Assembly: GCA_027604185.1 (NCBI GenBank)
Contig: JADGKB010000061.1
Span: forward strand, 1-64,000
DNA: 64,000 nucleotides
Reading direction: 5' to 3'
DNA from: Boothiomyces macroporosus
Lineage: Eukaryota; Chytridiomycota; Chytridiomycetes; Rhizophydiales; Terramycetaceae
In this document: one piece after another, positions 1-59,410 of the stretch
How positions within the stretch are numbered: the stretch's first letter is position 1
How the letters are laid out: the number at the start of each line of letters is the position of its first letter
Made by a program: the position numbers and the translations under genes
The notes under the pieces: generated by a model
Told to the model about the DNA's origin: nothing
The model's database searches: none
What the model saw: only the letters and a program-made list of their open reading frames with translations

Positions 1-388
1 CAGCAGTTTCCAGTGGAGCAAGTGTATCCATTGGCACCTCCACAGCTTCCATCAGGTGAGATTTTGACGACTGGAGTGGTTGAGCATTGACCGAGAGTGA
101 ATTTCTGTTGGCATCCGTTAGCAACATTGCAGAATGCTTCGGTGTTTCCACAGTATCCAGAAGCGGAGCAGCAGTTTCCAGTTGAGCAAGTGTATCCATT
201 GACACCTCCGCAGCTTCCATCAGGTGAGATTTTGACGACTGGAGTGGTTGAGCATTGACCGAGAGTGAATTTCTGTTGGCATCCGTTAGCAACATTGCAG
301 AATGCTTCGGTGTTTCCACAGTATCCAGAAGCGGAGCAGCAGTTTCCAGTTGAGCAAGTGTATCCATTGACACCTCCGCAGCTTCCAT
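1..388. repeat. 168-bp in-frame tandem repeats encoding CBM18 modules
   Basis: The block at 218-385 recurs at 50-217 and again, truncated by the window edge, at 1-49. The shift is exactly 168 bp (56 codons), and only a few bases differ between copies. Near identity at synonymous sites implies recent duplication or gene conversion. Confidence 0.9.
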
Positions 389-635
389 CTGGGGAAAGAG
401 GAACGCCTGATGGTTTTGATGCAACTGTGGTGGTGACAGTTGGAGTCGATCCAGCACAATTACCAAATCCTGATTGACAGCCAGCTCCACAGTATTGATC
501 TCCAGTGCCGCAAAGACCAAATGCAGCACAGCATTTAGAATCAGGGCAAATGGTGTTGTAAGTTGGACCACAGAATCCGTTGGTTGAAACGGTTTGAGAA
601 AATACGTATTGCAAGAGCAAAGTCACGAAGAGCAT
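1..635 (-). CDS. Secreted chitin-binding protein with tandem CBM18 (hevein-like) modules, 3' end missing
   Basis: Starts at 635 and runs off the left edge. The first 17 or so residues form a signal peptide (MLFVTLLLQYVFSQ). A divergent CBM18 module follows, with the pattern CGxxxxxCPxxxCCxxxxxCG, then a short Thr/Val/Ser linker, then at least two near-identical 56-residue CBM18 modules containing CCSASGYCG and ending CNVANGCQQKFTLGQCS. CBM18 binds chitin through aromatic residues in this Cys knot; no catalytic domain is seen in the part present. The protein probably coats chitin or anchors something to it outside the cell. A TATA element lies just upstream. No intron is needed in the visible part. 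Another catalytic domain could lie beyond the window. Confidence 0.85.
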   Translation of the reverse strand, partial: MLFVTLLLQYVFSQTVSTNGFCGPTYNTICPDSKCCAAFGLCGTGDQYCGAGCQSGFGNCAGSTPTVTTTVASKPSGVPLSPDGSCGGVNGYTCSTGNCCSASGYCGNTEAFCNVANGCQQKFTLGQCSTTPVVKISPDGSCGGVNGYTCSTGNCCSASGYCGNTEAFCNVANGCQQKFTLGQCSTTPVVKISPDGSCGGANGYTCSTGNC

Positions 636-660
636 TAGTGACGCAAACGCAATCGCAGTC

Positions 661-670
661 TTTATATAAT
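661..670 (-). promoter_or_regulatory. TATA box of the CBM18 gene
   Basis: ATTATATAAA read on the minus strand, 27-35 bp upstream of the start codon at 635. At normal TATA-to-start spacing this predicts a 5' leader of only a few bases. Confidence 0.5.
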
Positions 671-1156: not shown

Positions 1157-4100
1157 ATGATTTTGCAAATACTGGTTTTATCAATGTATGTTCAAGCTTG
1201 CAATTACGCAGGTTTAGCATGGTAAGTGTAATTAATGTAGGTGTATGGTTAAGCCTTGGATTGTGTTTGGTGATTAATTTCTCACATATAGATCCATTAC
1301 CGCACCCTGTTTTCATTGGCCAGAGAGTATCGACCTGCTTGAGCGAAAATGACTGTGTCCCAGCTTTTTGTCATGATATTGTAGGATTTGGGGATTGTTA
1401 TATCGATCCATCCAAAATTTTTGAGAATGTTTTGGACAGATTCAACCAGTGCAGTCAACAATATTGTCAAGCACCAACCCCTCCTCCTTCTGCATGTAAC
1501 CCTCAGGGTATCCTTTGTCCTAATTATAGATTGTACACCTGGGGCATGTCCTGCTAACCAGAGATGTTTAACACAAGCTTCATCAATTCAAAATGGACAA
1601 TGTACCCTTATTCCAATTTGTGAAGACTTACCTCAATGTCCAGCGCTAGATTGTAACGGAAAGTGTCCTGCAAACAGCAACTGTGTGGTTCATCCGCACA
1701 ATACTCTGCAAGGTCAATGTGACGGTTATATTGAATGCCAAAAACCTGCATGTCCTCCACCACAATGTAATTGTCAGCCAAATCAAAGATGTCAAATTAC
1801 ACAGCAAGGTGATTGCTCAGTTGGAATTTGTATTGATCCATGCGTATTCAAAACAAATGGATTAGATGCCGATGGATGTCTAGGACTTGCTCAATCTTTA
1901 AATATTCAACCATCGGATCTTTTGGCTTTTAATCCAGGTCTAGATTGTAATAATCTAAAACCAGGGCAAAGAGTATGTGGCAACAAAGGTTATGTCCCAG
2001 ATCCGCTACCAAAGCCAAGTATGAACATAGATGGAAGTTGTTTCTCTGTCGCTGCCATCCCGTCTTTTGGAACCTGCATTGCTTTTGGTCGGGATTATGC
2101 AATGACTAGAGCTGAAATTGAATCGTTCAATCAAAACACTTGGCAATGGGGTGGTTGTGCAAGCCAAATCTTTTTTGGTCAAAAAGTCTGTCTTTCTCCA
2201 GGAGTTCCACCTCGACCTGATATTGACCCTAAAGCAGAGTGTGGTTTAACTAACATCAACAACTCGACTTGTCCTTTGAATGCCTGTTGCTCCAGATGGG
2301 GATACTGCGGAAATGGGCCTGATTTTTGCACTTTTAAAACTGGTCCACCGGGCTTGGGTTGTCAAAGTAATTGTGGTGGTGCTCCTCCACCAGTTTGCAC
2401 AAATACAATGCAATATAAAGTCGGATATTACGCTTCGTGGTCAACTAACCGTCCTGCTGGGTGTCCTCGTAGTGGTATGTTATTTTTGACATAGGTCCTG
2501 CCAGCTTTGCGAATTCACCGTTCACACATCTTCATTTTGCTTTTGGAGGAATTGATGGAAATGGTCAATTGTCAGTAACCAGCCCTCAATTCGCCGAATT
2601 TGCGTCCATCAAAACGATTAATCCTTCCATGAAATTGATAATATCTGTAGGAGGATGGGCATTTAACGATGTTCCTGTAACCAACAATCAGCCAGATACT
2701 TCAGGTTATTATTCCAGAATGGTTTCAAGCAGCTCTTCCCGTTCTGTTTTCATCAACTCTGTCAAATCCTTTTTGTCTCAATACAATTTGGATGGAATAG
2801 ACTTCGATTGGGAATATCCAACTGCGCCAGATAGACACGGTACAAGCGCGGATGGTCAAAATTATGTCAGCCTTTTAAGGGAACTACGACAAGCTGTTGG
2901 TAACTCTTACTCTATTTCTATCGCTGCTCCAGCTTCTTTTTGGTACTTGAAAGGATTCGATATAGCTGGTATGTCCCAGTATTTGGATTATATTGTTTAC
3001 ATGACATACGATATGCATGGTAATTGGGATTATGCAAACCAATTTGTTGGTCCATCATTAAATGTTCACAACAACTTTACCGAGATAGTTCAAGCAATTA
3101 GTATGATTGAAAAAGCAGGTGTTCCTAGTAACAAATTGCTGTTGGGTCTGGGCTATTACGGCCGATCATTCAAACTTCAGTCGTCATCTTGTACTACTCC
3201 AGGTATCCAAAGTTTAAATTAGGTGTTTGTCAATTTGAAGATCCTGGAACTATGGTTGTGATTGGTAACGAACTGCAATATCCAAACACTGCCTTGGCAG
3301 GACGCTGCACCAACACAGGTGGTTATTTGGCCAATTTCGAAATCAAAGACATCATCGCTCGCCAAGGAGTAGTTCCTAGATTTGACGGCCCTTCACTATC
3401 TAATATTTTAGTGTATAATAATGGCAGGGATTGGATTGGTTACGATGACGCTCAATCTATGAGTATTAAGGTAGCAACTACTTAATCAGACTAATATTGC
3501 GTCGAATATCTGCTTAGGTGGCACTGCAGTTTGGTCCATTGACCAAAGCTGGGATTTGAATATAGTTTCAGCGCCGGCTTGTGGTAAACATTCAACACTG
3601 GACTTGAACAATCAATGTGCATGTGATGCAGATTTTGCATTTATCAACGGATATTGCTATTACACAAAATGTCAACAAAACTCTGTATGGAATTCTGATC
3701 AAGATGCTTGTGTTTGCAACGTTGGATTCCAAGGTTCTAATTGTACACCAATTCCACCGCCAACTTGTCCAGAACATGCTTCTGTTAACTTATTTAACGT
3801 CTGTGTTTGTGATCACGATTTTGAATTCCAAAATGGTGTATGCGTTTATACAAAGTGCCGGCCAAACTCTCAATGGGTTAATGACCAATGTGTGTGTTTG
3901 AACGGTTTTGAAGGGTCTGATTGTCACCCAGTTTGTCAAAGTGGATTTGCTTGGAATGGAAAACAATGTTCCTTGATTATGATTCTCGATCCAATTTGTA
4001 TTCCTGGGCACAGTTGTGTACCAGTTACGCCTGGTCCATTCCCAATATCGATTACATTACCATTCAGTTTTCCTGGTGTACCGATCCCTTTAGTGATTCC

Positions 4101-5413
4101 ATCACTTCCATTTAGCCTTAATTTACCTGGTATATCAGCTCCTGTGGACGTTACTGGGGAATCCCAACAAGATAAGGACAAGGATAATGAACAGCCTAGC
4201 AAGTGGGATACACCAACATTCGTTTCGTGTATCTACAATGATCCAATTTTCGACTTTGGAGTGCAAGTATCGGCAAAGTTGCTTAATCCGCCAAAAGATA
4301 AAGGTAGATGGATCAATATTTGCAAATCTTTACCATTAACCGTCTCCGATGAACAACTATATGCAACTACCTGCACAGTATCATCAGATACAGTCACTGG
4401 AACTTTCGCTGTAGATTTCGTGGATACATATGATTTCCCAGAAGCTATTTCTTGCTACAAACCAGATGATTTCGGCTCTTATGTATCTTCTTGTCCACTT
4501 AAAACGGGAATGGTAAGTTGATTTTAATTGTTAGAACAAAAGAGCACCGCAGTGTGATATTAAAAGTATTCTTGGAACTGATATTACTCCTGATTATTGG
4601 ACTATCCAAAATATTTTGGCAGAAATGAAAGAAATGAATACTTATGTTTATGTTCCTCCAGCAGAAAAAGAAGATATAGATATGTATGGAAAGGCTTTGC
4701 CAGACTATGATTTTGTTGAAGCTTATAACAACCGGTATCCAGATACGGCAGTTACAGTTGAGCAAGTACCTAACAAATTGCCTGTTACTACATTTGCCAG
4801 CAGAAATTATGTGTTTAGAGCGTTAAATAAGCAGGATATTAAAACCTTGATAAATAACAATAACAATATGGTGCCAAAAGATCAAAGCAAAAAGGCCAAA
4901 TATAAATATCTACCGTTGGATCACGTTGCCAAATTCGCCGGCAACTCCGATAACTTTATTTCAACGACATATGATATGGATGCTGCTCGTAGATACGCGA
5001 TAAATCCACTACTAGACGGAGCGAATTATAATTATTTCGTCATGATATCACTAAATAGTCCAAAACTGGTTGGAGGTGGTTTTATTGACTTGACTGTTCC
5101 AGCTGTTATAAATCAATGCAAACTAGATTATCGAACGGCAATTAACGTTAGAAATAGGGGAAAGAGAGTCAATAAAAAAGAAACAACTAGCCCAGAAATA
5201 CAAAATGACTGGGATCTTTTCCATCGTTGGGTCACCCAAGTTTCTGAAGTTTTGGTAGAAACTCAAATTCCAAAAGAAAATATTGTTTTTCAAGTAAAAG
5301 TTTATAGGCAATCTGGTGCGGTTTACTTTATTCCAAAATTCATCGAAACTCACCCATGGAATGCTGGCTGTAAAGCTCGAGGGGAAGATTACCTTTGCAA
5401 TTATTCTCAATAA
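1157..5413 (+). CDS. Modular secreted chitinase: LysM, CBM18, GH18, EGF-like modules and C-terminal ADP-ribosyltransferase-like domain
   Basis: Predicted 1370 residues. Introns: 1222-1240, 1270-1291, 1508-1529, 2475-2494, 3203-3222, 3471-3489, 4513-4534. Order: signal peptide; Cys-rich region; two LysM-like segments (about 200-330); CBM18 (about 340-390, CCSRWGYCG); GH18 barrel (about 400-758) with SVGGW and an intact DGIDFDWEYP at about 515-524, the catalytic Glu being near 523; two or more EGF-like Cys modules (about 765-890); a Pro-rich linker; an uncharacterised region; and from about 1165 a domain with YVFRALN, FISTTYD and SEVLVETQIPKENI, spaced like the R, S-T-S/T and E motifs of ADP-ribosyltransferases. 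LysM-CBM18-GH18 order is known from fungal subgroup C chitinases and yeast killer-toxin alpha subunits. The ART call is inference. Start: 1219 in unspliced DNA is an alternative, since it also gives a hydrophobic N terminus in frame. Confidence 0.85.
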
Positions 5414-5683: not shown

Positions 5684-7090
5684 TTAAATTTTATATTGAG
5701 AAATTTTAAACTCATACCCATTTTCACCACGGAACCCTTTTGGCCCTGTGTGGTTAATTTTCAAATTTAATTTTTCTACTTGATTGTAAAATAATTCCCA
5801 GTCAGTGCTTTTTAAAACTCTGGTGTGACCATAAAATGATTTGACTGGTAATTTAGGCAAATATTCGGCGAGTATTTGGCACGATTTAAAGGTTAATTCC
5901 GCTATTTTCAATTTCTTCAATTTAGATTTTGCAACTGCTTGAAAGAATGGCTCTATCAGTTCTTCTTCCATTTCATTAACCTCTATTTCTGTGAAATAAT
6001 GTCTCTCCAGTATATTTGTAACTGCATCAAGTGCTTTTTGATTGAAGATAGCAAACCTTGTGATATTATTCACCCTAATGAATAGTGATTGTTCATATAA
6101 AAGATACCAAAGTTCTGGATCAATATTGCCGTCAAAATCAAAGCATTCCAATTTGGATTTTGGTAAAGCTTGAAATAAACTTTTGTATCCCTCAAAAGGA
6201 ATGTGACTGCAAGTTAGAACCAAACGTCGCAATTTAGTATTCGGCAACATTTGCGCAATTGCTTTTGCACCAATTTCACTAATTGTTCCTGCAAATTCTA
6301 GTTGTGTAATTGAACTATTTGGCAAACTTCTCGCCAATGAAGTAATAATATCATCGGTTAATTCGTCACTAATATATAACTTTTTCAATTTTGTTTTGTG
6401 TAAAATTGAAATTAAATCATCTATTGAAGAGTTTTCTAAATACTTGATGTCGAGCAAGAGTAATTCATGAATTTGATAATCTATAATAGCTTGTGCAAGT
6501 AATTTGCAGTTAATATCATTGTCCGAAATTCTTAGTTTTCTTGTAATATTCTTGTTGCGTAATTGACAGTTTTGTAGTTCAGAAATAGATGAATATATAC
6601 AAAGAATATCTAGTTTGCAGAATTCCTCATCTCCAATAATATCACTGAATACTCCAAACCCATCATAAATCATTAATTGGTGAGCAATTCTTCTTAAGTG
6701 AATACCTTTGAATTCCATGTACTTTCTTGCATTTATTTTGATTTTTTGAATTTTGTATGGTACTTTTTCAAATAATGCGATATATTTCAATACATCCTGT
6801 TGATTACAGCATGCAAACTTCAAACAAGGCCATTTGCCCGATACTTTCCGATCAGTAAAAAGTATGCGAATAGGCGAAAGAAATTCATAGAAATATTTGT
6901 TGGCTATTCCTAGAAAGAGTATATCCTTTTCATCCATTAATTCGATTATCTTTGCTTGTAATTCTTGTGGAAGCAATTGGAGTTGGAATTCCTGTCCATC
7001 GTTTACAGCGTGTTTTGCTTCTTCAGTTTTCTTTGTTCCTTCTTGCTTCTCTTGTCCAAATTGCGATTTGTTCAATGAGATTTCAAACAT
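5684..7090 (-). CDS. F-box/LRR-like protein
   Basis: 468 residues from the first in-frame ATG at 7090. An open stretch extends upstream to 7168 without an ATG, so a 5' exon is possible. An F-box-like segment (LLPQELQAKIIELMDEKDILFLGIANK) is followed by degenerate leucine-rich repeats of about 25-28 residues with patterns such as LRRLVLTCSHI and LKKLYISDEL. F-box proteins bring substrates to SCF ubiquitin ligases through Skp1; the LRRs would bind the substrate. The neighbour at 7793-9283 has the same architecture and strand, so this is a local duplication, although the two have diverged strongly. No introns are required. The function is unknown beyond this family level. Confidence 0.65.
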   Translation of the reverse strand: MFEISLNKSQFGQEKQEGTKKTEEAKHAVNDGQEFQLQLLPQELQAKIIELMDEKDILFLGIANKYFYEFLSPIRILFTDRKVSGKWPCLKFACCNQQDVLKYIALFEKVPYKIQKIKINARKYMEFKGIHLRRIAHQLMIYDGFGVFSDIIGDEEFCKLDILCIYSSISELQNCQLRNKNITRKLRISDNDINCKLLAQAIIDYQIHELLLLDIKYLENSSIDDLISILHKTKLKKLYISDELTDDIITSLARSLPNSSITQLEFAGTISEIGAKAIAQMLPNTKLRRLVLTCSHIPFEGYKSLFQALPKSKLECFDFDGNIDPELWYLLYEQSLFIRVNNITRFAIFNQKALDAVTNILERHYFTEIEVNEMEEELIEPFFQAVAKSKLKKLKIAELTFKSCQILAEYLPKLPVKSFYGHTRVLKSTDWELFYNQVEKLNLKINHTGPKGFRGENGYEFKISQYKI

Positions 7091-7358
7091 TTTGGACAAG
7101 ATTTTTTCTTTCCAAATCCTCAGTTTATAAGCCACAACCTTGTCTAGCTTAAGAAAATTCTTGTCCAAGATGTTGGAATCTGACTAAGCAAATCGCAATT
7201 TTATCAAAATATGAAGTGTCAAGTTAAATGACATGTCTTTTTTTGATTGATAAATCAAATAAATATTATGTTCATTGCAAATATAAATAGCCTGATTTTG
7301 ATAGGTGAGGAGAGGTTGATAATAACTAAACAATTAAAAACCAAATTACAAAAAAGAC

Positions 7359-7792: not shown

Positions 7793-9283
7793 TTAATCAT
7801 TGAACAGTTTTGGCTTCCAACATTCACAATAATCTACGGGAACTACTGTTGCCAATTTTTCTTTGTGTATAAAGGCATCCTTTTCACCTGAATGTAGAGA
7901 TATTTTGAGATGCCATAAATGAGCTACAGAAGAAATAAATTCGTCATACTTTGTCAGTGAGCCAATTTCAAACTGCACCAGCGTACCTTTTGAAACATAT
8001 TGCAAATAATGAAAGTTGCCGTCATTTACTTTTCCGATCAGAGTTAGTTTAGGCACATTGATCTTTAAATATGGTATTCCCCAAACCGGAATAATCAGTT
8101 CTTTGAGTTTAATTTCCGCTAATCGACCAAGGAGTGCTTTATATGTGTCAAATTGGATCAATGAACCTATTCCCAGAGTGTCTACTTTTAGGTACCCCAG
8201 ATTATCTGCAATAAGCTGATAGTAGGAGCTTTTGAACCCTTTATAACTAAACCCAAACTCCAAATGCTTTACCTTTGATTTTGATAGACTTTCAAGAAAT
8301 GAAACTACAAATTCTTCAGCAATTTCAATCTGTAACCGTTCAATTTGTGAGGATGGCAGGCACCTGATCAATGCCATTGTTGAATCTGGACCGAGTACTT
8401 TTTGAAACTTTAGATTCTGTAATTTTAATTTTGGTAACTCTTCAATTAGCGGTAAAAAATCCTCTTCCTGCAACTGCAAATTATCGATATGTAATTCACG
8501 AATATTTGATCCTACCATGCCACGCGCCAAGAATTCAATATGCTGCTTTAGAATGACATCTGGATCAATATACACCCTTCCTGGTAGATTATACTGCAGA
8601 TTTTCCAATTTTGGATCAATTAATGTTAACCTCTCTATCATGGTTTCAGCAAGCACTTTAGATAAAGGTTCAACTGCCAGATTTACGTTCATACTTTCTA
8701 GGTGCAGCGCTTTGATTTTTGTTTCAGAAAGCACACCCATCAGGTTGGGTATGATATGTGTCAATACCCCTGTCAACTTTAATTCTCTTAAATTAGAGTA
8801 TTTCAGCATGGTAAAATCAACAGTGTCGTGAATTTGACAGTTCAATTGCTGTAGTTTCTTGAGACGCGGTAAACAGTTGAACAACAAATCATGTCCTGAT
8901 CCACTTATGATTATTGAATCAACTACATCCGCTAGAAGAGCTTGCTCAAGGTTTCTTGAAAGCCGTTCATATAAAAACAGTCGCTTTGTAGTTGCATTTG
9001 GTATCCGATTGTAAATATAAGGAAAAATGATACTATCCATCAGAACAGTTCTGTATATCAAGCCATTGGTTCTGCATTTTGCTATAAATTGGTCATATTC
9101 AGATTTCTTGACTTTGTTGAAAAGCAGCTCAAGGTCTGGCCAATATTCCATCATTTGAGGTTGAGTGTTTAATCGATTGTATAAATTTTTGTTGGCGAGC
9201 GATAGCTTGCATAAATCCTTGCTGGAAATATAGCATACAATATTGCGTTCCAAAATGTCGGTTGGGAGATTGTAAATTTCCAT
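7793..9283 (-). CDS. F-box/LRR-like protein
   Basis: 496 residues, intronless, with a clear ATG at 9283. The N terminus MEIYNLPTDILERNIVCYIS followed by KDLCKLSLANKNLYNRL is a typical F-box, which binds Skp1. The rest is a run of irregular leucine-rich repeats (LRELKLTGVL, IKALHLESMN, IERLTLIDPK). It is probably an SCF substrate receptor. It is the second member of a local same-strand pair; the pair share domain order but little sequence, so the duplication is old or the genes evolve fast. Confidence 0.7.
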   Translation of the reverse strand: MEIYNLPTDILERNIVCYISSKDLCKLSLANKNLYNRLNTQPQMMEYWPDLELLFNKVKKSEYDQFIAKCRTNGLIYRTVLMDSIIFPYIYNRIPNATTKRLFLYERLSRNLEQALLADVVDSIIISGSGHDLLFNCLPRLKKLQQLNCQIHDTVDFTMLKYSNLRELKLTGVLTHIIPNLMGVLSETKIKALHLESMNVNLAVEPLSKVLAETMIERLTLIDPKLENLQYNLPGRVYIDPDVILKQHIEFLARGMVGSNIRELHIDNLQLQEEDFLPLIEELPKLKLQNLKFQKVLGPDSTMALIRCLPSSQIERLQIEIAEEFVVSFLESLSKSKVKHLEFGFSYKGFKSSYYQLIADNLGYLKVDTLGIGSLIQFDTYKALLGRLAEIKLKELIIPVWGIPYLKINVPKLTLIGKVNDGNFHYLQYVSKGTLVQFEIGSLTKYDEFISSVAHLWHLKISLHSGEKDAFIHKEKLATVVPVDYCECWKPKLFND

Positions 9284-9530
9284 AAAACTATTGTACCTGT
9301 GGCTTTCTCTTGTGATCTACAGTGTGGTTACTCAATCGCAGTTGCTTGCAATAGGGGACAAATACCTGGTTTATATCCAACATTATCACTTTAACTTTGC
9401 TAAGTTGATCTTGGCCAATAAACGCGTGAAATTGAAATCAGTGATTTGAGTTTCAGTACATAAAAGAAATCAATTTTGTCGGTTATATTGTAAAGAATAG
9501 TCAAAAAGAATAAAAATGCTTTATAAAGAC

Positions 9531-10411
9531 TCAGCTCTTTTGAGTGTCATCCTCCTTATTCATTGGTTTCTTTTTCACCTCCATATTATTCGGTTTTCTA
9601 CCATGAAACAATAATTTTTTGATATGGAGAAAGACTAGTATCATCAAGGAAGCGTGAATATTCGTCGAGCAAGTATTTAGCAAGTAGAGTGTCTGCTCTG
9701 GGCTGTAAATGATATTGTACAGATAGATACCCACAGATATCCAATCAGCGACCACTAGCACCAAGCACATTATTACTGCTTTTCTCATTGGTGTAGTTAT
9801 TGGCACTGCTGTCTTTTCTTTCTTGAAATTGTACACGATACTCGTCAAATAAAATGCTTGCAGGTCTAACTTAGTTTAAATTACTGTCGTATACAACTGC
9901 AATTAGCGTATATGCCAACATTCCCAGTTCAGCATACTGAATTAGTAATAAATACTATTGAAACAGGTCTTGGATTTTTGTCATATGCAAGCTGAATAAA
10001 CAATCCTCCACAAAGAACAAAAAACAGGACTGAAACTGCGATTTTTGCTTTCCTTATTTTTGGATTGGTTATTTTCTCATTCAATACTTTGAATAGATTC
10101 AGTGTCTGATATTAGAATCACGTTACTTCTAGATTTAAAATATTCATAGTGTAGACTAAAACCGCACTAAAGAGAGCTGCTATATTGAACCATATCCGCA
10201 CTTTGGTTATAAAGTAGTAGCTGCAGTACAATAGCAAATGAAAGATTGTAATTATTTGAAATGCCAGCAGCGTGTATTTTAAAAAAGAGTTTGCTATCGA
10301 ATCTCTCTTTAATATTATCCTGATTACAATTCCATTTAAAACTAGTGTTAATGCAGATGTCGTTAGTGACACTATCCCTGTAGTTGTGTATGGGTCGAGT
10401 GTAGTTGACAT
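9531..10411 (-). CDS. Seven-transmembrane protein, family I, copy a
   Basis: 273 residues. Exons 10411-10127, 10105-9956, 9936-9885, 9865-9531; introns of 21, 19 and 19 nt. Seven hydrophobic segments are visible: TM1 near TTGIVSLTTSALTLV, TM2 ending in LLLYCSYYF, TM3 ending in NILNLE, TM4 after the basic ITNPKIRKAK loop, TM5, TM6 with ADWISVGIYLYN, and TM7 with NTCSTNIHASLMI. The tail is short and Lys-rich. The topology resembles a small GPCR, but I recognise no named family. Paralogues at 10724-11601 and 11819-12643 share the NLE, SIVYNFKK, DWI and Cys/Asn motifs. Confidence 0.75.
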
Positions 10412-10723
10412 TGAGTGATGTAAGCAGAAATTTTAAACTGTTTTAATGGGCCATTCGTAATTCTCAATCTATTGGATCTTGACCAAATTCTGCCTGATTG
10501 TGATTTGGTAGTGGATTTTTACTTTTATGAAATCATAACATAGTCACTCGTGGATGGCTATAGAGGTAAAAGGGATATTGCACGCAAAGAACAAGTACTG
10601 ACTGGTATAAATTTGGAAATTATTCATGCAATGTCTTTACAGGGAAAGGGATATTAAAACAGTCGAGTTCAAAGAGATAAAAAATTGAATATCATTAATA
10701 TTACAAAGCAATCAAACATTCAT

Positions 10724-11601
10724 TTATGTAGGAACATTCAACTTTACCGCAGTTTCATCCAATTTCGGCCCATAAATAGTCTTTTGTCTACCATGGAATA
10801 GCAAATCTTTGATGTGAATAAACAATATAATCATAAATGAGGCATGAATATTTGTAGAGCAAGTGTTGATAAGATAAAGTGTGTTTGGCGGGTAATACAC
10901 GATATTGTATATATACAGTCCAATGGATATCCAGTCAGCAAGGACTAGAACCAACCACATCAAGATTGCGTTTTGCATCGGCTTGGTTATTGGCAATTTA
11001 GACTTTACTTTTTTAAAATTGTATACTATGCTAGTCAGGTAAATGGCTTGACAATCTACATTAAACACTACCTTACTGTCATATAGAATTGTGAATAGAA
11101 TGTGAACTAGCATTCCTAATTGAGCATACTAGATTAGTTAAAGGTACCAAGGCGGCAAATGGCGGTATCACAGTATAAAACATTTGCAACACAAGTCCGC
11201 CAGAACAAACAATCAATAATATAATTATTCCCAACCGCGCTTTCCAAATCTTTGTTTCAGTTATGCGATCATCAAGAGCTTTAAACAAGGACAAGATCTC
11301 GTAAACATAAGCTTACCTCTAAATTCAGAGAATTGACTGTATACAAGATGATTGCCGTAAACAAAGTCCCGATTTCAAACCAAATTATTTCCTTGAATAT
11401 GAAATAAAAAGCGCAATACAAGAGCAAGTGTAATACAGTTACTATTTGGAAAAACAAGAGTTTGTATTTTAGTTTGTAATTGGATATCACGTTTTTGCCC
11501 AGAATCTTTTTGATTACATATCCATTCACTACTACTGCGAGTGAAGCTAGAGTGATGGATACTATTCCTGTATAAGATTTGGGATCTAGGGTTGTTGACA
11601 T
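10724..11601 (-). CDS. Seven-transmembrane protein, family I, copy b
   Basis: 272 residues. Exons 11601-11317 (285 nt), 11297-11148 (150), 11128-11077 (52), 11055-10724; introns of 19, 19 and 21 nt. The first three exons match copy a in length to the base, and all three intron positions are shared. Seven hydrophobic segments occur in the same order, beginning MSTTLDPKSYTGIVSIT and including ADWISIGLYIYNIVY and LINTCSTNIHASFMI. The function is unknown; receptor-like topology is an inference. Copies a and b are the closest pair, so this is a recent tandem duplication. Confidence 0.75.
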
Positions 11602-11655
11602 TTTCTAAAGTAGAAATATTCTTGCGCTTGACGTCACTTTGACAAGTATTATATA

Positions 11656-57066: not shown

Positions 57067-58017
57067 ATGCTTAGAAATTTCGTTTTCATATATGGAGTGT
57101 TTGGCCAGTTCAAGTTTTCAATGAATTACCCAGACACGCAAGTTGGGACCCCTGTTCCAGTTTCTCCAGCCTTTTCCGCGCAGTACAAATCGGTTCTAGG
57201 AGTTACCACTGGTCCAAAATCCAGTTGGGAGAAGACTGGGTGTATTGGAAAGACGGACTGGGCATTGACCTACGACGACGGCCCTTCTCCAAATACTCCC
57301 ATGGTATTGGCTGAATTAGCAAAGCACAATTACAAGAGCACTTTTTTTGTTGTTGGGTCTCAGGTTAAGAAATATCCTGAAATACTACTTCAAGCATATC
57401 AAGCGGGAATGGAAATTGGTGTACACACTTGGACTCACCCGTTTCTCACCCATTTAACGAATGAGCAAATAGTTTCAGAAATCATGTACACTTTTCATAT
57501 CATTAAAGATGTCCTGGGCATTGATTGCCGATACGTTCGAGCACCCTATGGCGATACAAATGATAGAGTTCGAGGAGTAATACAAGCACTTGGGTTTGTT
57601 TTGATCAGATGGAATAGGGATACAGATGATGCGCTAACCAACGGAAAATCAGTAGTGGCAAAATTTGATGCATTCATGAACCAAACAGTATTTGGAACTA
57701 TTTCACTAGAGCATGATTTAAATTTGTCCACTGCACAACAAACACCCTATGGAATGAACAAACTAGCAAAGAGCCCCTATACCGAAAGAACCATCAGTCA
57801 ATGTACTGGCGAGGCTGCTTATGGAAGAAAAGAGCCTTTTCCATCAAACACTTCTTTATCACAGACCACTGTCAGTGCTCAAACCGCAATTCAAACAAGT
57901 GCATCAAGTATCCCCAGCACCATTAGCTCGCTTCCAAGAGTAAGCACTACAAAGTCAGCTGATAAACGTATGCAATATCCCTTATTTGGTCTAGCCATTT
58001 TACTGTTCACAATATAA
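57067..58017 (+). CDS. Chitin deacetylase (CE4/NodB), GPI-anchored, copy 1
   Basis: 316 residues, intronless. Short signal peptide (MLRNFVFIYGVFG). The CE4 motifs are intact: TYDDGP (68-73, catalytic base and metal Asp), HTWTHP (120-125, metal His pair), RAPYG (158-162), WNRDTDDA and LEHDL (catalytic His). A Ser/Thr-rich stalk (about 250-300) and a terminal hydrophobic run indicate a GPI anchor. It turns wall chitin into chitosan, or modifies exposed chitin. Tandem with copy 2 at 58412. Confidence 0.93.
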   Translation: MLRNFVFIYGVFGQFKFSMNYPDTQVGTPVPVSPAFSAQYKSVLGVTTGPKSSWEKTGCIGKTDWALTYDDGPSPNTPMVLAELAKHNYKSTFFVVGSQVKKYPEILLQAYQAGMEIGVHTWTHPFLTHLTNEQIVSEIMYTFHIIKDVLGIDCRYVRAPYGDTNDRVRGVIQALGFVLIRWNRDTDDALTNGKSVVAKFDAFMNQTVFGTISLEHDLNLSTAQQTPYGMNKLAKSPYTERTISQCTGEAAYGRKEPFPSNTSLSQTTVSAQTAIQTSASSIPSTISSLPRVSTTKSADKRMQYPLFGLAILLFTI

Positions 58018-58411
58018 GAACGTTCTTGATTGTTTCAACAGCATTCTATTTTTTTGAGACTAAACCAGATAATGGCTTCCAAGGCAAACATTGATTAAAA
58101 ACAGCCAAATGGAGTTTGTGTAATGAGGGCTTGCAAAGCAATTTTTACAATCAAATTTCAAAGGAGCAGAAAAGAGATTGCAAAACGAAATCGATAGAAA
58201 CAAGGTAAATATCTACATTAACCACCAGTTCCGTTCAAGTTTAAGCAGTTCCCTTTAATCATTACCTCTATCCTAACAGTTTGGTTGAAAACCCTTTTTT
58301 GGTTCAATCCGCGTGATTTCTTTGACAGAAAACGGTTAGTTGTGCGGCATTGTTACAGTGGCACAGTCACACGGTACATAAATAGAAACCAAAATTAAAA
58401 CCGAAATAGAA

Positions 58412-59410
58412 ATGATTAGACTGATTGTACTTTTTGGTCATGTATTCTGCCAGTTCAAGTTTTCAATGACCTATCCAGACAATGAAGTTGGCAAGCCAGT
58501 TTCACCAAATCCAGCGTTTAATGACCTGTATCAATCTGTGCTGAATATTAAAACTGGTCCTGGTCTTGATTGGGAAAAGTCTTTTTGCAAAGTAAAAACT
58601 GATTGGGCATTGACGTATGATGATGGGCCTTCACAGTACACTCCAGATGTAGTTGAACAGTTGACTAAACGTAATTTCAAGGGCACTTTTTTTGTTGTTG
58701 GTTCACAAGTAAAGAAACACCCTGAAATACTGCTGAAAGCTTACCAAGCAGGGATGGAAATAGGAATCCACACTTGGACACATCCTGTCATGACAACACT
58801 CTCCAACGAACAAATAGTGGCAGAGCTGATGTATACATACCATATCATCAAAGATATAATTGGGGTAGAGTGTCGGTATTTCAGGGCACCTTATGGGACA
58901 ACCGATGGAAGACTGCGTGGTGTTGCACAGGCTCTTGGATTTGTAATGATTAGATGGAACAGGGACACTGGCGATGCAACTACAAATGGACGGTCGCTTA
59001 AACCACAATTTGATGCCTTTATGAAACAACCAATTGTTGGTACCATTTCTCTTGAGCATGATCTGCATTTAGAAACTGCCCAGTTGGCATCGTATGGTAT
59101 GGATAAGCTTAGTAAAAGCCCATACTCTGAAAAGACTGTTAGCGAATGTATAGGAGAACAGCCATACAGAAAAGTTGAAAAGGTTCCTACAACCACCTTA
59201 TTATCAAAGGTTCCTACAACCACCGTATTATCAACTATTTCAATTCAACCCTCTTCTACCTCCATCCCACATCCACTTACATCTGTCACTCCAGCAACAT
59301 TCAGTTCCATTCCAGCTTCATCCATGCACACGCAACCAACTACCAGACCAGCACAATCTAGTTCTACAAAACTTTGTTTTTCTGCCTGGATCCTTTTATT
59401 AATGATTTAA
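58412..59410 (+). CDS. Chitin deacetylase (CE4/NodB), GPI-anchored, copy 2
   Basis: 332 residues, intronless. Co-linear with copy 1: TYDDGP at the same positions (68-73), HTWTHP, RAPYG, WNRDTGDA (Gly where copy 1 has Asp) and LEHDL. The Ser/Thr/Pro stalk is longer and holds short repeats (KVPTTTLLS, KVPTTTVLS). A C-terminal hydrophobic run gives a GPI signal. A TATA-like TACATAAATAG at 58375-58385 is well placed. Loss of identity in the stalk but not in the catalytic core suggests both copies are active. Confidence 0.93.
   Translation: MIRLIVLFGHVFCQFKFSMTYPDNEVGKPVSPNPAFNDLYQSVLNIKTGPGLDWEKSFCKVKTDWALTYDDGPSQYTPDVVEQLTKRNFKGTFFVVGSQVKKHPEILLKAYQAGMEIGIHTWTHPVMTTLSNEQIVAELMYTYHIIKDIIGVECRYFRAPYGTTDGRLRGVAQALGFVMIRWNRDTGDATTNGRSLKPQFDAFMKQPIVGTISLEHDLHLETAQLASYGMDKLSKSPYSEKTVSECIGEQPYRKVEKVPTTTLLSKVPTTTVLSTISIQPSSTSIPHPLTSVTPATFSSIPASSMHTQPTTRPAQSSSTKLCFSAWILLLMI

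What the first reader, a model, noticed from the sequence alone, without database searches (positions are those of the whole stretch)
1157..5413. Chitinase carrying a C-terminal ADP-ribosyltransferase-like domain: a killer-toxin-like delivery protein
LysM, CBM18 and an intact GH18 module are followed by EGF-like modules and, at the very end, a domain whose YVFRAL / FISTTYD / EVLV..IPKENI motifs are spaced like the R-S-E triad of ADP-ribosylating toxins. Yeast killer toxins (zymocin type) use LysM-CBM18-GH18 chitinase parts to breach a wall and deliver a toxic subunit. Here wall recognition, wall digestion and a possible effector would sit on one chain. It could act on competing fungi, on host walls, or in self/non-self interaction. 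No immunity partner is evident nearby.
Basis: partly seen in the sequence, partly recalled or inferred. Interest (0 to 1): 0.85.

Follow-up and report, generated by a model that had tools for sequence, protein, structure and literature searches.

The report
Fungal chitinase with ADP-ribosylating toxin tail
A soil chytrid fungus encodes a single protein that can bind and cut chitin and ends in a domain related to a bacterial ADP-ribosylating toxin, which suggests a wall-breaching killer protein but has not been tested in the laboratory.

Summary
Window 1157-5413 reads as eight exons and seven 19-22 nt introns giving 1370 residues: LysM, CBM18, intact GH18, EGF-like repeats, a hydrophobic linker and a C-terminal domain. 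The window matches Boothiomyces macroporosus (Chytridiomycota); the public model HK103_006070 also splices the last exon onto the chitinase but lacks the first 294 residues. A profile of the last exon and its paralogues has 9zdm_B as best solved structure (E 7.8e-4): RhsF-CT of Chromobacterium violaceum, an RNA-modifying ADP-ribosyltransferase (ART) (PMC13324451). Its R1403, S1445 and E1497 align with R1173, S1221 and E1316 here. It scores 22.0 bits; the best shuffle scored 9.2. New here: a Lys-Arg site between two cysteines lies at the chitinase/ART junction and recurs in a paralogue whose ART is about 40% identical, which suggests a nicked, disulfide-held toxin. The chitinase part is 77-81% identical between copies, the ART 39-42%. 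Other copies are damaged or partial. ART homology is well supported; catalysis, delivery and target are inferred. I call it a new variant: a zymocin-like wall-breaching protein with an ART payload. No structure prediction was available.

The parts
1157..5413 (+). Whole gene, 8 exons: 1157-1221, 1241-1269, 1292-1507, 1530-2474, 2495-3202, 3223-3470, 3490-4512, 4535-5413; 1370 aa
   Evidence: Splice model gives one open frame; N-terminal exons supported by the C107 paralogue, which lacks the first intron (by eye); public model P0004 covers residues 295-1370 apart from 12 residues at one intron (by eye)
1157..1221 (+). Exon 1: short hydrophobic N-terminus, possible signal peptide
   Evidence: Sequence inspection only; no signal-peptide program was available
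1883..1978 (+). LysM domain, residues 222-253
   Evidence: PF01476, 22.7 bits, cut-off 20.9
2237..2374 (+). CBM18 chitin-binding domain, residues 340-385
   Evidence: PF00187, 38.2 bits; same place in genome search
2420..3546 (+). GH18 chitinase domain, residues 401-756, DGIDFDWE motif intact (spans introns)
   Evidence: PF00704, 207.5 bits
3559..3945 (+). EGF-like cysteine-rich repeats, residues 761-889
   Evidence: PF25024 23.9 bits, under its cut-off of 65
3970..4134 (+). Proline-rich hydrophobic linker, residues 898-952: holds the eight most hydrophobic 19-residue stretches of the protein
   Evidence: Kyte-Doolittle scan, peak 1.52 at residues 922-941
4234..4512 (+). Cysteine-containing stretch before the ART, residues 986-1078, no Pfam match
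   Evidence: 51% identical to the C107 copy over the 87 of 93 residues aligned
4513..4534 (+). 22-nt intron joining chitinase and ART exon
   Evidence: also spliced in the public model; a 21-nt intron in the C107 copy at the same place
4492..4555 (+). Cys1072 ... Lys1080-Arg1081 (4538-4543) ... Cys1085: candidate Kex2-type cleavage site inside a possible disulfide loop
   Evidence: One of only three KR/RR pairs in 1370 residues; the paralogue also has Cys...KR-Cys at this place
4781..5305 (+). ART-related core, residues about 1161-1335
   Evidence: Profile match to 9zdm_B, E 7.8e-4; shuffle control; weak DUF7587
4817..4819 (+). Arg1173, aligned with RhsF R1403
4961..4963 (+). Ser1221 of FISTT, aligned with RhsF S1445
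4994..4996 (+). Tyr1232, 11 residues after the serine like RhsF Y1456; not conserved in the paralogue, alignment uncertain
   Evidence: paralogue has Ala; MAFFT does not pair the two tyrosines
5246..5248 (+). Glu1316, aligned with RhsF E1497
1..661 (-). Divergently transcribed CBM18-repeat protein gene, cut off by the contig start
   Evidence: PF00187, 3 stretches, 67.5 bits; 168-bp tandem repeats

Best explanation
A secreted, modular killer-type protein of the chytrid Boothiomyces macroporosus. LysM and CBM18 hold it to chitin, GH18 loosens a chitin wall, EGF-like repeats and a hydrophobic linker act as stalk and possible membrane-contact part, and the C-terminal ART domain is the payload. 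[quoted passage not shown] Shown here: gene structure, carrier domains, ART homology with aligned active-site residues, and the dibasic/cysteine junction conserved in a paralogue. Inferred: secretion, cleavage, disulfide, uptake, catalysis, target, and that the victims are other chitin-walled organisms.
For: Domains. Profile match to RhsF-CT, E 7.8e-4 over 177,635 sequences; 22.0 bits against a best of 9.2 in the shuffle control. RhsF-CT resembles ARTs by crystal structure and modifies RNA in vitro; R1403, Y1456 and E1497 are needed for toxicity (passages of PMC13324451). R, S and E are kept in a paralogue whose ART is about 40% identical. Junction splice conserved in the C107 copy and in the public model. 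Dibasic site between cysteines conserved. Payload diverges faster than carrier: dN 0.58 against 0.12-0.14, with omega 0.31 for the ART, so it is constrained (dS is near saturation, so omega is rough). 5 of 57 chitinase relatives are named killer toxin subunits alpha/beta. Zymocin pairs a chitin-binding chitinase subunit with a hydrophobic subunit and a toxic subunit released by breaking disulfides (passages of PMC11119588).
Against: A single-sequence search of the PDB found no ART. The two stretches matched in 9zdm_B have E-values of 0.14 and 84 taken alone. Profile-profile comparison aligned only one block, probability 37.5%. DUF7587 stays below its cut-off, 21.7 against 27. S-to-E spacing is 95 against 52 in RhsF. 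The tyrosine essential in RhsF is alanine in the paralogue if aligned without a gap. No structure prediction could be run. No other chitinase-ART fusion was found outside Boothiomyces, so there is no independent lineage to confirm the design. No expression data. Four of the five copies found are damaged or partial, so the system may be in decline.
Confidence: 0.55

Rival explanations
1. The ART is active, but the protein works outside cells or against small animals rather than fungi: it would modify surface proteins or NAD of grazers such as nematodes or rotifers, the chitin parts binding eggs or cuticle.
For: Beauveria bassiana has a predicted cluster of 17 secreted proteins with an ADP-ribosylation fold whose orthologues are reported only from insect-killing fungi (PMC12099005, passages). 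Nothing in the sequence fixes the victim.
Against: The carrier resembles fungal killer-toxin-like chitinases, and the dibasic/cysteine junction suggests a payload meant to be released.
Confidence: 0.2
2. The terminal domain is an ART relative that has lost catalysis and serves as a binding or structural module of an ordinary chitinase.
For: Fast divergence, long S-to-E distance, no tyrosine at +11 in the paralogue, weak family scores.
Against: Arg, Ser and Glu all kept in both divergent paralogues; omega about 0.3; a dibasic site at the junction has no evident purpose in a plain binding module.
Confidence: 0.17
3. The last exon belongs to a separate transcript and the fusion is an annotation artefact.
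For: No RNA evidence was available here.
Against: A short intron at the same place in both paralogues (22 and 21 nt), the public model joins it, and the first ATG of the exon lies about 30 residues in, with no evident signal sequence after it (translation).
Confidence: 0.04
4. The gene is a decaying relic whose product is no longer made, like the other copies.
For: C107 has frame-disrupting differences, C199 lacks the 5' part, C88 holds two 3' remnants.
Against: The window copy is open over 1370 residues, GH18 and ART motifs are intact, and divergence shows constraint.
Confidence: 0.04

Closest known systems
RhsF-CT (9zdm_B), ART toxin domain of a Chromobacterium violaceum T6SS Rhs effector (PMC13324451)
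   Same: VYRAL/VFRAL, FISTT and EVL..IPK motifs in the same order; R1403, S1445, E1497 align with R1173, S1221, E1316; both are C-terminal payloads on a large carrier.
   Different: Bacterial, carried by an Rhs protein and T6SS with immunity protein RhsFi; 42 and 52 residues between R-S and S-E against 48 and 95 here; overall identity 21% in the alignment.
Zymocin of Kluyveromyces lactis (alpha/beta/gamma killer toxin)
   Same: Chitin-binding and chitinase part, a hydrophobic part, a separable toxic part, disulfides (PMC11119588, passages).
   Different: Zymocin is encoded by a plasmid (linear: PMC3482391 passage) that also carries its immunity factor, and its payload degrades tRNA; here the gene lies on a contig of 82,671 bp, the payload is an ART relative on the same chain, and no immunity gene was recognised.
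LysM-CBM18-GH18 chitinases of fungi, some annotated as killer toxin subunits alpha/beta
   Same: GH18 in 56 of 56 relatives scanned, CBM18 in 47, LysM in 45; the order LysM-CBM18-GH18 was seen in the two whose positions were printed.
   Different: None of those 56 matches the ART profile at E 10 and none showed DUF7587 or another ART family in Pfam at E 0.01.
DUF7587 (PF24494)
   Same: Matches residues 1185-1334 over positions 30-143 of 146.
   Different: Score 17.0 for the whole protein and 21.7 for the exon, under the cut-off of 27; no paper in the library holds the name.
Bacterial polymorphic toxins, Tox-ART-RSE class
   Same: Conserved carrier with a faster-diverging C-terminal ART; at least 13 toxin domains of such systems reported as transferred to fungi (PMC3482391, passages).
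   Different: No adjacent immunity gene recognised; the payload sequences here belong to one family, so divergence rather than swapping is seen.

Membership tests
ADP-ribosyltransferase superfamily (R-S/Y-E type) | Sequence homology to a proven member | tested here: met
   9zdm_B, E 7.8e-4 by profile; 22.0 bits against at most 9.2 in 15,923 scored of 20,000 shuffles; not seen with the single sequence
ADP-ribosyltransferase superfamily (R-S/Y-E type) | Arg, Ser (or Tyr) and Glu in register and conserved | tested here: met
   R1173, S1221, E1316, kept in the paralogue; Tyr only in the window copy
ADP-ribosyltransferase superfamily (R-S/Y-E type) | Split beta-sheet ART fold | not testable with these tools
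ADP-ribosyltransferase superfamily (R-S/Y-E type) | NAD-dependent transfer or hydrolysis | not testable with these tools
   Needs an enzyme assay
Fungal LysM-CBM18-GH18 (killer-toxin-like) chitinases | LysM, CBM18 and GH18 in order with intact GH18 motif | tested here: met
   DGIDFDWE present
Fungal LysM-CBM18-GH18 (killer-toxin-like) chitinases | Secretion signal | tested here: inconclusive
   Hydrophobic N-terminus by eye only
Zymocin-type killer toxin | Chitinase carrier, hydrophobic part, separable toxic part | tested here: inconclusive
   Anatomy present; cleavage and disulfide inferred
Zymocin-type killer toxin | tRNA-degrading gamma payload | tested here: not met
   The payload is ART-related and shows no nuclease family in Pfam; no direct comparison with gamma toxin was made
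Zymocin-type killer toxin | Encoded by a killer plasmid | tested here: not met
   Contig of 82,671 bp carrying kinase, methyltransferase, transporter and deacetylase genes
Polymorphic toxin | Adjacent immunity gene | tested here: inconclusive
   No ADP-ribosylhydrolase or macro domain match in the window; other immunity families not searched; the neighbouring CBM18 gene is only a candidate

The most novel reading that the evidence does not exclude
An all-in-one eukaryotic AB-type killer toxin: chitin binding, chitin cutting, translocation segment and a Kex2-nicked, disulfide-held RNA-ADP-ribosylating payload on one gene, in which an ART related to bacterial T6SS toxins fills the place that the tRNase fills in zymocin, with the divergent CBM18 gene shielding the producer's wall.
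Probability: 0.2. Interest if true: 0.85.

Novelty: new variant of a known kind. Interest (0 to 1): 0.62.

Why it matters
Fungi hold many killer-toxin-like chitinases, and in the 56 relatives scanned here Pfam named no ART in them. Here one tail can be named, and its nearest solved relative is an enzyme with a known active site. This makes a clear test possible of whether such chitinases are delivery machines for toxic enzymes, in an early-branching fungal lineage, and offers an antifungal mode of action to look for elsewhere.

Tried and rejected
A 70-nt first intron was tried and rejected because it broke the frame; two introns of 19 and 22 nt fit instead, and the C107 copy, which lacks the first, reads similar residues there (by eye). 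A 47-nt intron at 3471 was replaced by 19 nt because it broke the frame.

The PfEMP1 and RNF8 matches were dropped as weak (E 0.11 to 0.21). NCBIfam and PHROGs gave only weak, unrelated matches (best E 0.0065 and 0.036). Plasmid and phage searches gave nothing useful: no match, and one tailspike match at E 6. The genome-collection scan with the ART alignment found no relative among 60 pattern matches; the scan with the RhsF-CT piece found 3 of 100, of which L028 does not read through the whole domain in one frame and was not used. A DUF7587 search of the own genome was uninformative because no control rang either. Ribosomal RNA typing of the genome never returned an answer; the organism rests on P0004 and its contig length. 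Tne5, another Rhs toxin with an ART fold, was considered (PMC13285283, passages) but the structure hit fits RhsF. Fold search was not used, having no model.
Full report
What is there. The window is 64 kb of a contig of 82,671 bp in a 15.2 Mb assembly of 216 contigs. A database search with the gene's own protein returns P0004, HK103_006070 of Boothiomyces macroporosus, 99% identical over 79% of the query and from a contig of the same length. The taxonomy places it in Chytridiomycota, Rhizophydiales, Terramycetaceae. The gene runs from 1157 to 5413 in eight exons with introns of 19, 22, 22, 20, 20, 19 and 22 nt and encodes 1370 residues. The public model starts at residue 295 of this model, so it lacks the N-terminal region with the LysM domain; it also omits 12 residues at one intron (compared by eye). 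Pfam finds LysM, CBM18 and GH18 above their cut-offs and EGF-like repeats below theirs.

The last exon. It holds 292 residues. Without splicing, both the window copy and the C107 copy stop within a few codons after the preceding exon. Both have a short intron there, 22 and 21 nt. Six of the seven window introns have a counterpart of 21-23 nt at the same place in C107, although one of the six lacks a standard 3' end there; the seventh is absent. The public annotators also joined this exon. I therefore take the fusion as real, without RNA proof.

Is it an ART? A profile of the exon, two paralogue copies and one remnant (A1) was compared with 177,635 PDB sequences. Three matched at E up to 10; the best was 9zdm_B, E 7.8e-4, and the other two are RNF8 chains at 0.15 and 0.21. 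I take 9zdm_B to be RhsF-CT of Chromobacterium violaceum: '9zdm' is counted once in PMC13324451, in a passage I was not shown; the sequence recurs in two Chromobacterium genomes; and the paper's four numbered residues fall on the right letters of it. I read passages, not the whole, of that paper: crystal structure at 1.85 A, similarity to ART toxins, transfer of ADP-ribose to RNA in vitro, loss of toxicity on replacing R1403, Y1456 or E1497, and partial reduction for S1445. Counting by hand along the sequence printed, these residues are the R of VYRAL, the Y eleven residues after the serine, the E of QEVLIRN and the S of FISTT. The window has R1173, S1221 and E1316 in the matching motifs, and Y1232 at the same offset. 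Against 20,000 shuffles of RhsF-CT, of which the program returned scores for 15,923, the best was 9.2 bits against 22.0 for the real sequence; with the A3 profile, 16,878 scores, best 10.7 against 19.6.

Results that weaken this: the single exon finds no ART in the PDB; the two separate stretches have E-values of 0.14 and 84 on their own; hhalign gave a probability of 37.5% and aligned only the stretch around FISTT; adding RhsF to the profile found no second ART; the RhsF-CT piece itself matches no Pfam family; S to E is 95 residues against 52; the paralogue has Ala instead of Tyr, and MAFFT does not pair the two tyrosines. DUF7587 matches below its cut-off. I put the ART homology at about 0.9 and retained activity lower.

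Paralogues. C107 and C199 hold copies 99.3% identical to each other over 2706 aligned bases, and both fetched stretches run to the contig end. C107 covers the whole protein but has frame-disrupting differences (by eye and from the frames of the matches); C199 is similar to the window protein only from about residue 505 on. C88 has two 3' remnants. Only the window copy is intact. A 138-residue protein of Boothiomyces sp. JEL0838 looks close to the C199 ART by eye, so the ART exists in a second isolate; whether it is fused to a chitinase there is unknown. Identity of the window protein to C107 falls from 81% (GH18), 79% (EGF) and 77% (LysM/CBM18) to 64% (linker), 51% before the ART and 39-42% within it; the N-terminal 210 residues are 60% identical and the C-terminal tail 50% over 18 residues. 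With C199 and C107 pieces, dN is 0.12-0.14 for GH18 and EGF parts, 0.32 for linker and pre-ART and 0.58 for the ART, with omega 0.31 for the ART; dS is about 1.8 to 2.3 or saturated, so omega is rough. Against one C88 remnant omega is 0.35. The payload changes faster but is still constrained.

Only three KR or RR pairs occur in the 1370 residues. One, K1080-R1081, lies one residue into the last exon, between C1072 and C1085. The paralogue has the same order: a cysteine, a longer stretch, then KR followed at once by a cysteine. Between copies only about 40% identical here, this is a notable conservation, though it rests on two sequences. Together with the hydrophobic linker at 898-952 it resembles toxins that are nicked and held by a disulfide (recalled comparison). 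That Kex2-like enzymes cut after Lys-Arg is recalled; no cleavage was shown.

How special. One search found 57 proteins at E up to 0.001 among 3756 candidates. The 56 besides P0004 were scanned with Pfam: GH18 in 56 of 56, CBM18 in 47 of 56, LysM in 45 of 56, no ART family at E 0.01. The precomputed list also gives PF26794, whose nature I did not establish, for 11 of 57. The ART profile at E up to 10 hit 3 of the 60 proteins held: P0004, P0001 and P0003. A search of 5.77 billion proteins with the ART alignment returned one protein at E up to 1 among 2010 candidates, from Boothiomyces; with the exon alone, none of 333 candidates at E 0.001. That search needs shared short words, so distant fusions could be missed. 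In the paper library, the combinations GH18, ADP-ribosyltransferase, LysM and fungi, killer toxin, ADP-ribosyltransferase, fungal and chitinase, and killer toxin, chytrid and chitinase listed 2, 2 and 8 papers; none had a title or abstract start describing such a fusion. I did not read those papers.

Neighbours. Upstream and divergent is a CBM18-repeat gene cut by the contig start. A CBM18 frame also stands beside the C107 copy, where it breaks off, and beside one C88 remnant; C199 lacks the 5' part. CBM18 matches are common in this genome (34), and the pairing was probably copied with the gene. Chitin-binding proteins such as Avr4 shield fungal walls from chitinases (PMC3569864, passages), so self-protection is a possible role. 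The genome has one ADP-ribosylhydrolase match and two macro-domain matches, none in the window.

Verdict. A real, intact chitinase-ART fusion, best read as a zymocin-like wall-breaching protein with a different payload. Membership in the ART superfamily is supported by sequence; membership in the zymocin family is not claimed.

Noticed in passing
window 1-661 (-): CBM18-repeat gene with 168-bp tandem units runs off the contig start; the repeats may have ended the assembly there.
   Followed up: partly
L002/L021 (contig C88): Remnants of the ART 3' end, one beside a CBM18 gene with upstream DNA 97% identical to the window's over 112 bases; long neighbouring reading frames, present twice, look like crinkler-type NTPase proteins (recalled resemblance).
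   Followed up: no
L019 and L004, ART part: A 21-nt stretch in the paralogue ART looks like an extra short intron absent from the window copy, suggesting gain or loss of very small introns.
   Followed up: partly
window 1157-5413; L019: All introns recognised in these copies are 19-24 nt, extremely short for a fungus (recalled comparison).
   Followed up: partly
window 5684-7183 (-) and 7793-9316 (-): Two long leucine-rich, F-box-like proteins (by eye) without a Pfam match at E 0.01.
   Followed up: no
window 9531-11604 (-): Neighbouring frames that look like repeated multi-helix membrane proteins of one family (by eye).
   Followed up: no
window 57067-59407 (+): Two neighbouring polysaccharide deacetylase genes, possibly chitin deacetylases, on the same contig.
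   Followed up: no
contig C92:33443-38158: An open frame of 2209 residues with four GH18 matches and a CBM18 match: a repeated-module chitinase.
   Followed up: no
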